Positions 34,670 through 39,930 of a DNA stretch of 54,327 nucleotides are shown piece by piece. Positions within the stretch are counted from its first letter, which is position 1; each line of letters starts with the position of its first letter. The DNA comes from Armatimonadota bacterium (GTDB taxonomy: Bacteria; Armatimonadota; SYMT01; JACQGL01), in contig JACQGL010000067.1 in the NCBI GenBank assembly GCA_016199525.1, positions 1 through 54,327 of the forward strand. Reading direction: 5' to 3'. A program made the translations under genes and the position numbers. Below the pieces are notes generated by a model that did no database searches, was not told the origin of the DNA, and was given only the letters and a program-made list of their open reading frames with translations.

Positions 34670-35971
34670 TTAACGAACGCCTCCAGGCTCCAGATAGATG
34701 ACGCCGTGCCTGTCATCATAGGCAAGCAGCTCAGCGTAGCGACCCCAGCCCACCGCAGTTTCGATCTGGCGCTCCGCCTCTGGAGGGGGGAAATCCAGAC
34801 CGAGGGCGGTTTGCGCGACGTCCGCTTCAATCTGATGGTTGTCGGCGGCAGCGAGCATAGCGAGGAGCCACCTGAAAAGCGGCAAGCGGCGGATGCGGGT
34901 GGCAAATATTTCCTTGCGCGCCACAATGCTGGCAGCGGCAAAGGTTTCTCCCAGGGGAGTGAGGCTGATATCGCCCTGGGCGACGGTGGCGAATCCAAGC
35001 AACTCCGCCGCCTCCGTGAGGCGGAGAAGGTGATCCGAATTGATCTTGAGGTCGTCGGCCAAGCGGTAGATATCGGCGCGGTGGTGCGGGACGTCGGCCA
35101 GATGTTCCAGCACCGCCGCCAGCTCGTTCACTGTGACCAGCGGCAGCGCGCGTGTGCGGCCGGGTTCGCCAGGGGCGGTGCCCATTTCCACGTGCTCCGG
35201 CTCCGTCTGGCCCGCCAGGGTAGCGTAGACGCGATCCACCACGGCCAGAAATTCCGACCCTTTATGGTGCCGCGGGTGTGGCAGGTTCACCGGCAGGTCC
35301 GCGACCACGCGCCCCGGGTCTTTTTCCATCACCACGATGCGGTCCGCCATGAAGACGGCCTCTTCGATATTGTGCGTGACCATGAGGATGGCGCGCGTGG
35401 GGATGCCGCCGCCGAGCCACAGTTCCAGCAGCTCCCCGCGCAGCGCGTCCGCGCTCAGCACGTCCAGAGCGGAAAACGGCTCGTCCAGACAGAGCAGTTC
35501 CGGCTCCACGGCCATCGCGCGCGCGAACCCCACCTTCTGCCGCATGCCACCAGACAACTCGCGCGGGTAAGCGGTCTCGAAGCCGTCCAGGCCTACCCTG
35601 TCCAACAGGTCTATGGCACGGAGCGAACGCGGCTGCGGTGGCACCCCGCGCGCCTTGAGCGCCACTTCCACATTCTGCTGGACGGTGAGCCAGGGAAAGA
35701 GGGCGAAGCTCTGAAACACGATCGTCGCATAGGGGTTGACACCATGCAGAGGCTGACCGCGATAGAGGACCTGACCCTCGGTGGGCGCCTGCAGGCCGGT
35801 GATAATGCGCAGCAGCGTGCTTTTCCCACACCCTGAGGGCCCCAGGAGGGCGACGAACTCTCCTTCGTCTACCACCAGGTTAACATCCTGCACGGCGGGG
35901 AACTGGCGCTGGCCAGTGGTGTAGATCATGTGAATGTGCTGCAGTTCCAGCAGGTGGCTGTTCGTGGTCAT
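34670..35971 (-). CDS. ABC transporter ATP-binding protein (nitrate/sulfonate type) with C-terminal AAA-associated domain
   Basis: LLGPSGCGKSTLLRII, LSGGMRQKVGFARA, LLCLDEPFSALD; C-terminal AAA_assoc-like extension. Confidence 0.92.
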   Translation of the reverse strand: MTTNSHLLELQHIHMIYTTGQRQFPAVQDVNLVVDEGEFVALLGPSGCGKSTLLRIITGLQAPTEGQVLYRGQPLHGVNPYATIVFQSFALFPWLTVQQNVEVALKARGVPPQPRSLRAIDLLDRVGLDGFETAYPRELSGGMRQKVGFARAMAVEPELLCLDEPFSALDVLSADALRGELLELWLGGGIPTRAILMVTHNIEEAVFMADRIVVMEKDPGRVVADLPVNLPHPRHHKGSEFLAVVDRVYATLAGQTEPEHVEMGTAPGEPGRTRALPLVTVNELAAVLEHLADVPHHRADIYRLADDLKINSDHLLRLTEAAELLGFATVAQGDISLTPLGETFAAASIVARKEIFATRIRRLPLFRWLLAMLAAADNHQIEADVAQTALGLDFPPPEAERQIETAVGWGRYAELLAYDDRHGVIYLEPGGVR

Positions 35972-35974
35972 GGA

Positions 35975-37708
35975 TCACTCCATGCGAAAACGTTCCTCTG
36001 CCAGCCGGTAGAACCGGCGCCACACGAGGCGGTTAATGGCGACCACGGTGAGGATCATGGCGAGCGTGGCTGCGAGGAGGAGCGGATAATCGCCGGTAGC
36101 GGTAGCCTGGGCGATGAGAGCGCCAATCCCGATGGTTTGCCGCGTCCGGCCGCCAAAGGTCACGTACTCGGCGACAATGCTGGCATTCCAGGCGCCGCCG
36201 CCGGCAGTGATGGCCCCGGTGATGATATAGGGGAACAGCGCCGGCAGGATCAGGGTGATCCAGCGCTGCCACCGGTTCAGTTGCAAGAGAGCGGCGGTGT
36301 ACTTGAGATCCTGGGGAATAGCGCTGGCGCCCGCAATGATGTTGAACAGGAGATACCACTGCGTACCCATCAGCATCAATAAAAGGGCGGCCAGGTTCAA
36401 CCCGCCCGGCAGATGAAGGACCAGCAGCAGAAAAACGGGAAAGAGCGCGGTAGCGGGCACGGACGCGACAATCTGCACCAGCGGTTGCAGCCATATCGCC
36501 AGGCGACGGTTGGTGCCGATGGCGACGCCTATGGGAGTGGTCCAGGCAAGGGCAATCGCCAGCGCCGCCGCCACACGGAGCAGCGTCGCCACCAGCCCGA
36601 CACCGATTGCTCCCCACTCGGCCAGAGGGACCTTCAGCAACATGTCCCCCGCCAGGCCCGCGCCATAGAGAAGCCCCATGCCCCCCAGAACGGCGGCCGG
36701 ATAGACGGCCAGCGAGGTGCCCGCCTTCTCCGGCGCGGTGGCTACGGCGGCCGGAAACCGGCGCAGCAGGGCGCGATCCAGGTGTTCCGACAGGGGCGAC
36801 AGAAGGTGCCGTCCCAGCGATTCGACGACGCGGGAAGCCCGCAGCGTCTCGTAGAACCAGGACGTAGATGGGTTTTCACTTTCGACGAGTTCCAGGCTAA
36901 AGCGATCCGACCAGGCCAGCAGCGGGCGCCAGACGAGCTGATCCATAGCGATGATCAACAGAATCAGCGTGCCGATACCCAGCGCCAGGGCGTGGAGGTT
37001 CGCCTGGCGGGCAGCCTCGCTCAGGTAGGCTCCCAGGCCGGGCAGCCGGAAATCCCGCTGGCCGACGGTGAAGATCTCGGCGGCCATAAGGAAGAACCAG
37101 CCGCCCGCCCAGCTCACCATGCTGTTCCAGGTGAGGCTGATGGCGCCGAACGGCAGCTCCAGCGTCTTGAGCCGCAGCCAGCCGTTGAACCGGAAGATAG
37201 TGCTGGCCTCTCGCAGCTCTTTGGGAATGGTGGTCAACGCCTGGTACCAGGCGAAAGTAAGGTTCCACGCCTGACTGGTGAAGATGAGCGCCACGGATGC
37301 CAGTTCGGCGGCCACGTGCTGCGGCAGAATGGCCCGCAGGCTGAGCATTACCACGGGCAGAAATGACAGGATCGGTATGCTCTGGAGCACATCCAGCAAC
37401 GGCAAGAGGATCTTCTCTGCCCGGCGGTTGTAGGCCGCCAGATAGCCGTACACCAGGGAGAAAAACAGAGATAGGAGGTAAGCCACTCCCATACGGGCCA
37501 GGGAAAGCCCTGCGTATAGCGGCAACGCGCGGGGGGAGAGCGAAATGGCGGGGCCGTGGATCACCGCCGGCGTAGCCAGGGCCAGGCGCACCCCGACGTA
37601 GACCAGCACGGCAACCCCGAGCAGCACCACGGCGTCTCCCCACGCGAGGGGCCGCAGGGTGAACTGTCGGATGCTAAAGACCCGGACACGCTGTTCCATA
37701 GACGTCAT
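35975..37708 (-). CDS. ABC transporter permease, two fused permease domains
   Basis: 577 aa, duplicated binding-protein-dependent permease domains, EAA-like loops (KELREASTIFRFNGW...; QDLKYTAALLQLNRWQRW). Confidence 0.9.
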   Translation of the reverse strand: MTSMEQRVRVFSIRQFTLRPLAWGDAVVLLGVAVLVYVGVRLALATPAVIHGPAISLSPRALPLYAGLSLARMGVAYLLSLFFSLVYGYLAAYNRRAEKILLPLLDVLQSIPILSFLPVVMLSLRAILPQHVAAELASVALIFTSQAWNLTFAWYQALTTIPKELREASTIFRFNGWLRLKTLELPFGAISLTWNSMVSWAGGWFFLMAAEIFTVGQRDFRLPGLGAYLSEAARQANLHALALGIGTLILLIIAMDQLVWRPLLAWSDRFSLELVESENPSTSWFYETLRASRVVESLGRHLLSPLSEHLDRALLRRFPAAVATAPEKAGTSLAVYPAAVLGGMGLLYGAGLAGDMLLKVPLAEWGAIGVGLVATLLRVAAALAIALAWTTPIGVAIGTNRRLAIWLQPLVQIVASVPATALFPVFLLLVLHLPGGLNLAALLLMLMGTQWYLLFNIIAGASAIPQDLKYTAALLQLNRWQRWITLILPALFPYIITGAITAGGGAWNASIVAEYVTFGGRTRQTIGIGALIAQATATGDYPLLLAATLAMILTVVAINRLVWRRFYRLAEERFRME

Positions 37709-37825: not shown

Positions 37826-37985
37826 GGTTGGAGGGTTGGAAAGTTTGAAGGTCGAAGATTGGCAGGTTCAACGGTCCGGACGCGCGAGCCTGCCAACCTG
37901 CAATCTGTGTACTACAACCTGTTAACCTGTAAACGCACCGATCTACGACCCGCTCATCTGCCAATGTGCCAGCCTCCCAACGGGC
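37826..37985. repeat. Intergenic imperfect inverted repeat of GGTTGGA/CCAACCT words
   Basis: GGTTGGAGGGTTGGAAAGTTTGAAGGTCGAAGATTGGCAGG versus CCAATGTGCCAGCCTCCCAAC and CAACCTGTTAACCTG. Confidence 0.5.
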
Positions 37986-37998
37986 CGACGGTTGTGAT

Positions 37999-38361
37999 CT
38001 ACTCTCCCCACCGCGGCCCCCAGCGGTGCGCAACCCAATCGTAAAGGCGGTCGCTGATCCAGTGAAACCCGGGGAGGCGGCGGAGCGGCCGGAGCAACCA
38101 GCCGCCGGGCGCCAGGTAGAGGGTGTGCCAGATAGCATCCGCGCCCATCCAGCGGCGCCCGTCCGGAGCCAACAGCCAGGCGTGGCGCAGGCGCTCCTCG
38201 GCGGGCACGTCCTCCAGAAGGCGCGCCGCTACCTCGCTGCGCAGGGGTACGAGCCGCAGTCGGGCTTCCCCTACCAGGCACACGGCCCGGCGCGCCCAGC
38301 GGGCTCAGACACTTCACCGGCTCTCGTATAGAAGAATGTAGCGGCGGTCGGTCTGGGTCAC
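37999..38361 (-). CDS. Candidate selenoprotein: DCC/DUF393 thioredoxin-like protein with UxxU in place of CxxC
   Basis: GTG 38361 (GGGAG RBS) to TAG 37999: VTQTDRRYILLYESR[TGA]SV[TGA]ARWARRAVCLVGEARLRLVPLRSEVAARLLEDVPAEERLRHAWLLAPDGRRWMGADAIWHTLYLAPGGWLLRPLRRLPGFHWISDRLYDWVAHRWGPRWGE. Both in-frame TGAs lie where the DCC family has its active-site Cys-x-x-Cys. Confidence 0.65.
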
Positions 38362-38461
38362 GGAACGTCTCCCAGAACAGCGGCGGAGAGGTGCGCACGC
38401 CGGTGCCGCTGCGGGCGCTCGACCATGCGGCATTAATGCGGTGCACCGGATACCTTGTCAC

Positions 38462-38625
38462 CAGACCACTGCCGGGTGAAACCACGAAACGAGAAAACGA
38501 TGAGACGACCAGAGGCGGAAATGAAGGGCAGCGGCCCCTCGCGCCCCGTTTTCTCATTCTGTCGTCGCCTGGCTTCTTCGTGTTCCGGCTTCCTCGTCGC
38601 TTGGTTTCCTCATCTGCCAGGTACC
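38462..38625. repeat. Imperfect inverted repeat upstream of SpoIID gene
   Basis: ACGAAACGAGAAAACGATGAGACGAC versus GTTTTCTCATTCTGTCGTCGCCTGG...TTCGTGTTCC...CTCGTCGCTTGGTTTCC. Confidence 0.45.
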
Positions 38626-38649
38626 CGCACGCTCCCGAAGGCCATCGGG

Positions 38650-39930
38650 ATGGGCCTCTCGCTCGCCGCGCTCGCGCTCGGGTGTGCTGCCAACCGGCCA
38701 TCGTTGCCCAGGCATCCGGGAGCACCGCCCGCCCTGGCTGCCCCGGCGCCCCGCCCCACGCCCCACCCCGGGAGCAACCCGGTGCTGCGTATCGGACTCC
38801 GCAAGGCGAGCGGTGGCGTGGCGGTAACGGTGGTTCCGAGCGCACGCGCCATGCTGGTGGATGCGGCCACCGGGCACCGCCTGGCCGTTCTGCCATCCGG
38901 TCAGCCGGCGCGCCTGGTCCTGGATGTGCACGCAGGGCAAATACAGATCGAGCGCCCGGGGCCGGTGATCGCCGCTCCCAGCGTGCGGATCCAGGTGCGC
39001 GGCGGCCGCCTGGCGATCCCGACTACCTCGGGACGCTATCCTTCCCCGCTCCTGGTCTACCCCGCTGCGGGAGGGCTCCAGGTGGTCAACGAGGTGCGCC
39101 TGGAGACCTATCTGGAAGGCGTTCTACCGGGCGAGCTGCCCCCTTCCTTCGCCCCAGAGGCACAGAAGGCCCTGGCGGTGGCCGCCCGCACCTACGCCCT
39201 GCGGAACCTGGACAAGCATACGGACGCGGGCTACGATCTCTGTGACGGCCCCCACTGCCAGGTCTACCTGGGCCATACGACCGCTTCCCCGCGCGGGCTG
39301 CGAGCGGTGCGCGCTACACGTGGCCTGTGCGTCTGGTTTCGCGGCCAGCTGGCCTGCACCTTCTATTCTGCCGACTGCGGCGGGCAAACAACGTTCGCCC
39401 GCGAGGTACCGCTGCCGGATATGCCCGCGCCGCCGCCGTCCTACCTCCGGCCCGTGCGGGATGCTCCTCGTCCCGCAGGCCCGGACTACTGCCGTCGGAG
39501 TTCGCACCACTGGTGGTCTGCCCGCGTGCCAGTGGCGGAGCTGGAGGCACGGCTGAACGAGGACCCCGGGACGGCGGTCGGGAAACTGCTGTCGGCGCGG
39601 TTTGGCGACCGGGATGTCACCGGCCGGGTGCAACGCGTGTTCCTTGAGGGGGAGGTTCTGGCGCCGACCGGCGCCACGCAGCGCCTGACGCGGATGCTCT
39701 CCGGCTGGGAGTTCCGGCGGCGGGTGGGGCCGCGGCAGATGCGCTCCACGCTGGCGAAGATCGAGCGGGTTTCGCCAGAGGAGTTCCGGATCACAGGAAC
39801 GGGCAACGGCCATGGGTTGGGCCTGTGCCAGATCGGTGCGGACGGAATGGCGCGCCCACCCTACTACGCCAACTTCCGTCAGATTCTGCGGCATTACTAT
39901 CCAGGGGTGCAGGTGGGGAAGGAGGGGTGA
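38650..39930 (+). CDS. SpoIID/LytB-domain protein, probable lipoprotein
   Basis: LETYLEGVLPGELPPSFAPEAQKALAVAARTYAL; HCQVYLGHTTASPRGLRAVRATRGLCVWFRGQLACTFYSADCGGQTT; lipobox LALGC. Start uncertain. Confidence 0.8.
   Translation: MGLSLAALALGCAANRPSLPRHPGAPPALAAPAPRPTPHPGSNPVLRIGLRKASGGVAVTVVPSARAMLVDAATGHRLAVLPSGQPARLVLDVHAGQIQIERPGPVIAAPSVRIQVRGGRLAIPTTSGRYPSPLLVYPAAGGLQVVNEVRLETYLEGVLPGELPPSFAPEAQKALAVAARTYALRNLDKHTDAGYDLCDGPHCQVYLGHTTASPRGLRAVRATRGLCVWFRGQLACTFYSADCGGQTTFAREVPLPDMPAPPPSYLRPVRDAPRPAGPDYCRRSSHHWWSARVPVAELEARLNEDPGTAVGKLLSARFGDRDVTGRVQRVFLEGEVLAPTGATQRLTRMLSGWEFRRRVGPRQMRSTLAKIERVSPEEFRITGTGNGHGLGLCQIGADGMARPPYYANFRQILRHYYPGVQVGKEG

What the first reader, a model, noticed from the sequence alone, without database searches (positions are those of the whole stretch)
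37999..38361. Candidate UxxU selenoprotein of the DCC/DUF393 thioredoxin-like family
The reverse-strand frame reads VTQTDRRYILLYESR-TGA-SV-TGA-ARWARRAVCLVGEARLRLVPL...GADAIWHTL...WISDRLYDWVAHRW and ends at TAG. The DCC (DUF393) family has its redox motif as (Y)DGxCxxC at this exact position and spacing, so both in-frame TGAs replace the two active-site cysteines. Two random nonsense mutations hitting precisely both Cys codons, with the flanking frame intact and a GGGAG RBS upstream, is improbable; selenocysteine at both positions is the simpler reading. A GC-rich potential stem-loop (CCCG-CTGGGCGCGC-CGGG, GG in the loop) starts about 11 nt after the first TGA, within the usual bacterial SECIS range for that codon. 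I have not folded it, and a SECIS for the second TGA is less clear. Standard ORF calling gives only the 94-aa fragment 37999-38283.
Basis: partly seen in the sequence, partly recalled or inferred. Interest (0 to 1): 0.92.

Follow-up and report, generated by a model that had tools for sequence, protein, structure and literature searches.

The report
Double-selenocysteine DCC-family redox gene
A small bacterial redox-enzyme gene has UGA codons in place of both active-site cysteines, and related genes in other bacteria show the same pattern, so it most likely encodes a selenium-containing version of a protein family (DCC/DUF393) that is not on the current published list of selenoproteins.

Summary
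The reverse-strand frame 38361-37999 has two TGAs, no other internal stop, coding-like codon composition, and matches Pfam PF04134 (DCC1-like). Both TGAs fall on profile positions 7 and 10, the CxxC active site.

Support came from homology searches blind to stop position. Among about 155 listed DCC matches in 291 genomes of the phylum, only two carry an in-frame stop. Both are TGA on the second active-site Cys (CxxU), one in the window's own order. A GTDB scan found a fourth case, UxxU in a Polyangia MAG, among 75 CxxC relatives. All six TGAs in the four genes sit on active-site cysteines. Three of the four, the window included, are followed by a hairpin stronger than most synonymous recodings. 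AlphaFold2 folds the read-through protein confidently.

The weak point is machinery. The 88%-complete assembly lacks selA, selB and tRNA-Sec, but holds the start of a selD gene whose own catalytic codon is TGA, cut by a contig end. Both relatives in the order have all four.

Best reading: a UxxU selenoprotein of the DCC family, absent from a 2026 inventory of 119 prokaryotic families. A recent pseudogene is the main rival.

The parts
37999..38361 (-). DCC/DUF393 (PF04134) gene, GTG to TAG, 120 residues with two in-frame TGAs (UxxU)
38314..38316 (-). first in-frame TGA, residue 16, at PF04134 profile position 7 (first active-site Cys)
38305..38307 (-). second in-frame TGA, residue 19, at PF04134 profile position 10 (second active-site Cys)
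38274..38299 (-). candidate bacterial SECIS stem-loop, 10 bp with loop CGGGCC; loop starts 24 nt after the first UGA and 15 nt after the second
   Evidence: local MFE -16.8 kcal/mol, p=0.03 against synonymous recodings, not unusual against dinucleotide shuffles
38369..38373 (-). GGGAG, possible ribosome-binding site 7 nt before the GTG
   Evidence: sequence only

Best explanation
The gene encodes a selenoprotein of the DCC (DUF393, PF04134) thioredoxin-like family whose active site is UxxU instead of CxxC. During translation SelB with Sec-tRNA(Sec) is recruited by one stem-loop just downstream and inserts selenocysteine at both UGAs; the ribosome then continues to the TAG. The 120-residue product would be a thiol/selenol-disulfide oxidoreductase with a diselenide/diselenol pair at the start of helix 1. 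Shown here by sequence and models: the frame, the TGA register, recurrence of TGA at the same cysteines in three other genomes, a hairpin at about the expected distance, and a TGA-containing selD in the host. Inferred: actual Sec insertion, use of one SECIS for both codons, and the redox role. The physiological partner is unknown.
For: TGAs in register with CxxC. Of about 155 listed DCC matches in the phylum only two have an in-frame stop, both TGA on an active-site Cys; an independent UxxU gene in Polyangia among 75 CxxC relatives. Confident fold with residues 16 and 19 at the start of helix 1, pLDDT 91.9, pTM 0.84. Hairpin ranks 8 of 79 against synonymous recodings; two other TGA genes rank 2 and 4 and share the hairpin CCUG-GGU-CAGG, 17 nt after the second UGA. 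Host selD has a catalytic TGA, and both other genomes of the order have selA, selB, selD(U) and tRNA-Sec. Both contigs fit the bin by composition.
Against: selA, selB and tRNA-Sec not found in the host assembly. No close homologue of this particular gene found, so selection on the read-through frame could not be measured. The usually conserved DG before the motif is ES here. The hairpin is unremarkable against dinucleotide shuffles and its loop is 1 nt too close to the second UGA for the published rule. With X at the TGAs the N-terminal segment adds no profile score.
Confidence: 0.82

Rival explanations
1. A recently inactivated DCC gene: either both cysteine codons mutated to stops, or it was a selenoprotein gene that died when this lineage lost its Sec machinery and has not yet decayed further.
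For: selA, selB and tRNA-Sec are missing from the assembly; the DG of the motif is replaced by ES; long end branch of 1.23 in the tree.
Against: Two stops both on the active-site codons have probability about 0.001-0.01 by chance; no other disruption; codon composition intact; the same pattern in three other genomes; the host's selD itself depends on Sec.
Confidence: 0.12
2. UGA is read as cysteine or another amino acid by a suppressor tRNA, not as selenocysteine.
For: From general knowledge, opal-decoding cysteine tRNAs have been described in some bacteria; no tRNA-Sec was found in the host assembly.
Against: A pattern search of the host genome for tRNAs with anticodon TCA, checked with ARAGORN, found none, although that search is not exhaustive. 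The host has a Sec-type selD, and relatives have a normal tRNA-Sec.
Confidence: 0.03
3. The real product is something else: the 94-aa fragment starting at 38283, an ORF in another frame, or an artefact of two sequencing errors.
For: A 94-aa ORF and a 317-aa ORF (37943-38896, -) are open under the standard code.
Against: The 94-aa piece would lack the first strand and the active site of the fold. The 317-aa ORF and the + strand ORF match no Pfam family, and the 317-aa ORF has codon composition unlike the neighbouring genes. Two separate errors on the two active-site codons, with the same pattern in another phylum, are improbable.
Confidence: 0.03

Closest known systems
DCC1-like thiol-disulfide oxidoreductases (PF04134, DUF393), CxxC form
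   Same: Same fold and profile; TGAs occupy the two active-site cysteine positions
   Different: Both cysteines replaced by UGA; DG before the motif is ES
Prx-like thiol:disulfide oxidoreductase (PF00578), putative mercuric reductase (NF041115) and FmdB (TIGR02605) UxxU selenoproteins
   Same: Two Sec replacing both members of a CxxC motif (PMC13188914 Table 1)
   Different: Other protein families; PF04134 is not in that inventory of 119 families
Thioredoxin and glutaredoxin selenoproteins (UxxC)
   Same: Thioredoxin-like fold with Sec at the start of helix 1
   Different: Single Sec, separate families; fold matches to thioredoxin-like and glutaredoxin structures are weak, best E=0.03

Membership tests
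DCC1-like / DUF393 (PF04134) | Profile match above the curated cut-off | tested here: met
   55.2 bits with TGA as Cys, 41.3 with X, against a cut-off of 27.8
DCC1-like / DUF393 (PF04134) | DxxCxxC motif at profile positions 4-10 | tested here: inconclusive
   Reads ExxUxxU: positions in register, Asp replaced by Glu, both Cys by UGA
DCC1-like / DUF393 (PF04134) | Thioredoxin-like fold with the motif at the start of helix 1 | tested here: met
   AlphaFold2 pLDDT 91.9, pTM 0.84; strand 8-12, helix 17-30; PDB matches weak but thioredoxin-like among the best
Bacterial selenoproteins | In-frame UGA at a position that is a redox Cys in homologues | tested here: met
   Both UGAs; same positions in three other genomes
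Bacterial selenoproteins | Bacterial SECIS: 3-9 nt loop with G in its first two positions, 4-16 bp stem, 16-37 nt from the UGA, MFE at most -7.5 kcal/mol | tested here: inconclusive
   Met for the first UGA (24 nt); 15 nt for the second; weak statistics
Bacterial selenoproteins | Host has selA, selB, selC and selD | tested here: inconclusive
   selD with TGA found at a contig edge; selA, selB and selC not found in an 88%-complete assembly; all four in both relatives of the order
Bacterial selenoproteins | Selenium in the expressed protein | not testable with these tools
   Needs 75Se labelling or mass spectrometry

The most novel reading that the evidence does not exclude
The DCC family is an overlooked selenoprotein family in which Sec and Cys have been exchanged several times (UxxU in this lineage and in Polyangia, CxxU in at least two other lineages), with one short stem-loop serving two UGAs nine bases apart to make a diselenide active site.
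Probability: 0.6. Interest if true: 0.68.

Novelty: new variant of a known kind. Interest (0 to 1): 0.62.

Why it matters
If right, it adds a family to the known prokaryotic selenoproteins and supplies rare UxxU cases, in which one recoding signal must act on two UGAs three codons apart. Standard gene callers truncate or miss such genes, so DCC annotation is probably wrong wherever the family uses Sec. Cys and Sec forms of the same small protein are available (L134 against L121), which makes the catalytic benefit of Sec directly testable.

Tried and rejected
One search used an RNase P family by mistake and says nothing about Sec. The best tRNA-Sec hits in the host are ordinary tRNAs; its selB hits are LepA and two EF-G-type factors; its selA hit scores only 26 bits. 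The apparent TGA homologue L059 is a short chance match; that genome's real DCC gene is intact (G163:C122). A plasmid search and a GTDB scan with the window protein found no relative. Compensating frameshifts around the motif were considered and dropped by reading the sequence: no other frame gives CxxC at the right spacing. Dinucleotide shuffles do not single out the window hairpin (z about -0.9); only the synonymous-recoding test gives weak support. For G002 the hairpin is not supported (rank 50 of 79). Rfam has no match here. A PDB sequence search with the DCC profile gave only chance hits. Gene neighbourhoods looked at for the window, L134 and L116 share nothing obvious.

Full report
1. 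What is in the sequence. On the reverse strand, 38361 to 37999 reads GTG...TAG with two TGAs at 38314-38316 and 38305-38307 and no other internal stop. GGGAG lies 7 nt before the GTG. Codon-position GC (0.75/0.56/0.83) resembles the neighbouring genes. An overlapping 317-aa ORF in another frame (37943-38896, same strand) and a 121-aa ORF on the + strand match no Pfam family.

2. Family and register. With TGA as Cys the protein matches PF04134 at 55 bits. The piece after the TGAs alone gives 42 bits, and with X at the TGAs the N-terminal 20 residues add nothing. The strength of the case is therefore register: the TGAs fall on profile positions 7 and 10, which are the two cysteines in intact members. 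AlphaFold2 with 42 homologues folds the whole 120 residues (Cys at the TGAs) at pLDDT 91.9 and pTM 0.84, strand 8-12 leading to helix 17-30, so residues 16 and 19 occupy the classical CxxC position. Foldseek against PDB gives only weak matches, with thioredoxin-like, glutaredoxin, redoxin and GST structures among the better ones.

3. Do relatives carry TGA too? A profile search of 291 genomes of the phylum, reading through stops, listed about 155 DCC matches. Two had an in-frame stop. Both are TGA and both sit on the second active-site cysteine: WDGNCGFU in G002, from the window's own order, and IDGECGLU in G072. A scan of GTDB genomes with that subfamily returned 78 loci: 75 CxxC, these same two CxxU, and one UxxU (WDGDUGFU, locus L134, a Polyangia MAG) whose Cys relatives in Myxococcaceae are about 66% identical. 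One of the two search patterns in that scan required the cysteines, so TGA forms are probably under-counted. On one-step paths to a stop, two hits both on the active-site codons have probability about 0.001 in the window gene and 0.002 in L134 (0.011 and 0.028 if only TGA counts); for the two single-TGA genes it is about 0.05 each. A tree of 70 sequences puts the four TGA genes in four places; well-supported branches force at least two changes. The direction of change is not shown, and the alignment is short.

4. SECIS. The published bacterial model is a 3-9 nt loop with G in its first two positions, a 4-16 bp stem, 16-37 nt from the UGA and at most -7.5 kcal/mol (PMC13188914). The window hairpin (38299-38274, loop CGGGCC) meets all four relative to the first UGA (24 nt, -16.8 kcal/mol) and misses the distance by 1 nt for the second. 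L134 and G072 have nearly the same hairpin, CCUG-GGU-CAGG, with GGU 17 nt after the last UGA; part of that likeness comes from the shared peptide AWVRR. Against synonymous recodings of the same peptide the four TGA genes rank 2 (G072), 4 (L134), 8 (window, p=0.03) and 50 (G002) of 79 sequences. Against dinucleotide shuffles the window hairpin is unremarkable.

5. Sec machinery. The host assembly (3.74 Mb, 266 contigs, 88% complete) has no tRNA-Sec above cut-off, no selA and no selB; the hits are ordinary tRNAs and elongation factors. It does have the first 93 residues of selD with a TGA at the catalytic position (MNTVTTMRLTETVRCGGUASK...), running off contig C159. The two other genomes of the order have the same TGA in selD, tRNA-Sec beside it, selA and selB. 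A selD that itself needs Sec implies a working Sec pathway (inference). In those relatives tRNA-Sec lies just beyond the 3' end of selD, which is where the host contig breaks. The sequence upstream of selD in the host is not selA, so selA would have to lie elsewhere. The window contig and the selD contig fit the bin's tetranucleotide profile (correlations 0.92 and 0.81; pieces of the window as long as the selD contig give 0.74-0.84). Whether the genomes behind L134 and G072 have the machinery was not tested.

6. Taxonomy. G002 corresponds to SYMT01000257.1, labelled Actinomycetota at NCBI, so the labels do not agree.

7. Literature. No paper in the searched library combines selenoprotein or selenocysteine with DUF393, DCC family, DCC1-like or oxidoreductase DCC. 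A 2026 inventory of 119 prokaryotic selenoprotein families (PMC13188914) lists UxxU in three other families and does not list PF04134. Subscription papers and database annotations were not searched, so earlier notice elsewhere is possible.

8. Verdict. Selenocysteine at both positions is the best reading (0.82). The main rival is a gene that died recently, perhaps with loss of the Sec machinery. The decisive data are a more complete genome and expression evidence.

Noticed in passing
L116 5736-6098 (G002:C188, SYMT01000257.1): DCC gene with a CxxU active site (WDGNCGFU) in a genome of the window's order that has selA, selB, selD(U) and tRNA-Sec; its downstream hairpin is weak.
   Followed up: partly
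L117 1734-2105 (G072:C45, JAICGT010000045.1, Fimbriimonadales): DCC gene with a CxxU active site (IDGECGLU) followed by a strong GGU-loop hairpin 17 nt after the UGA; Sec machinery of that genome not checked.
   Followed up: partly
L134 2989-3351 (JAUHXR010000254.1, Polyangia MAG): DCC gene with a UxxU active site (WDGDUGFU); Cys relatives in Myxococcaceae about 66% identical; hairpin CCUG-GGU-CAGG nearly the same as in L117.
   Followed up: partly
L082 1-284 (G000:C159, reverse strand): Start of selD with an in-frame TGA at the catalytic position, running off the contig end: a second likely selenoprotein gene of the window's genome.
   Followed up: yes
window 37943-38896 (-): Open 317-aa frame overlapping the DCC gene in another frame; no Pfam match and codon composition unlike the neighbours, but likely to mislead gene callers.
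   Followed up: yes
window 34670-37708 (-): ABC transporter pair downstream on the same strand: a permease with two BPD_transp_1 stretches and an ATPase with a C-terminal AAA-associated domain; no evident link to the DCC gene.
   Followed up: no
window 38455-39930 (+): SpoIID-domain protein encoded divergently just upstream of the DCC gene.
   Followed up: no
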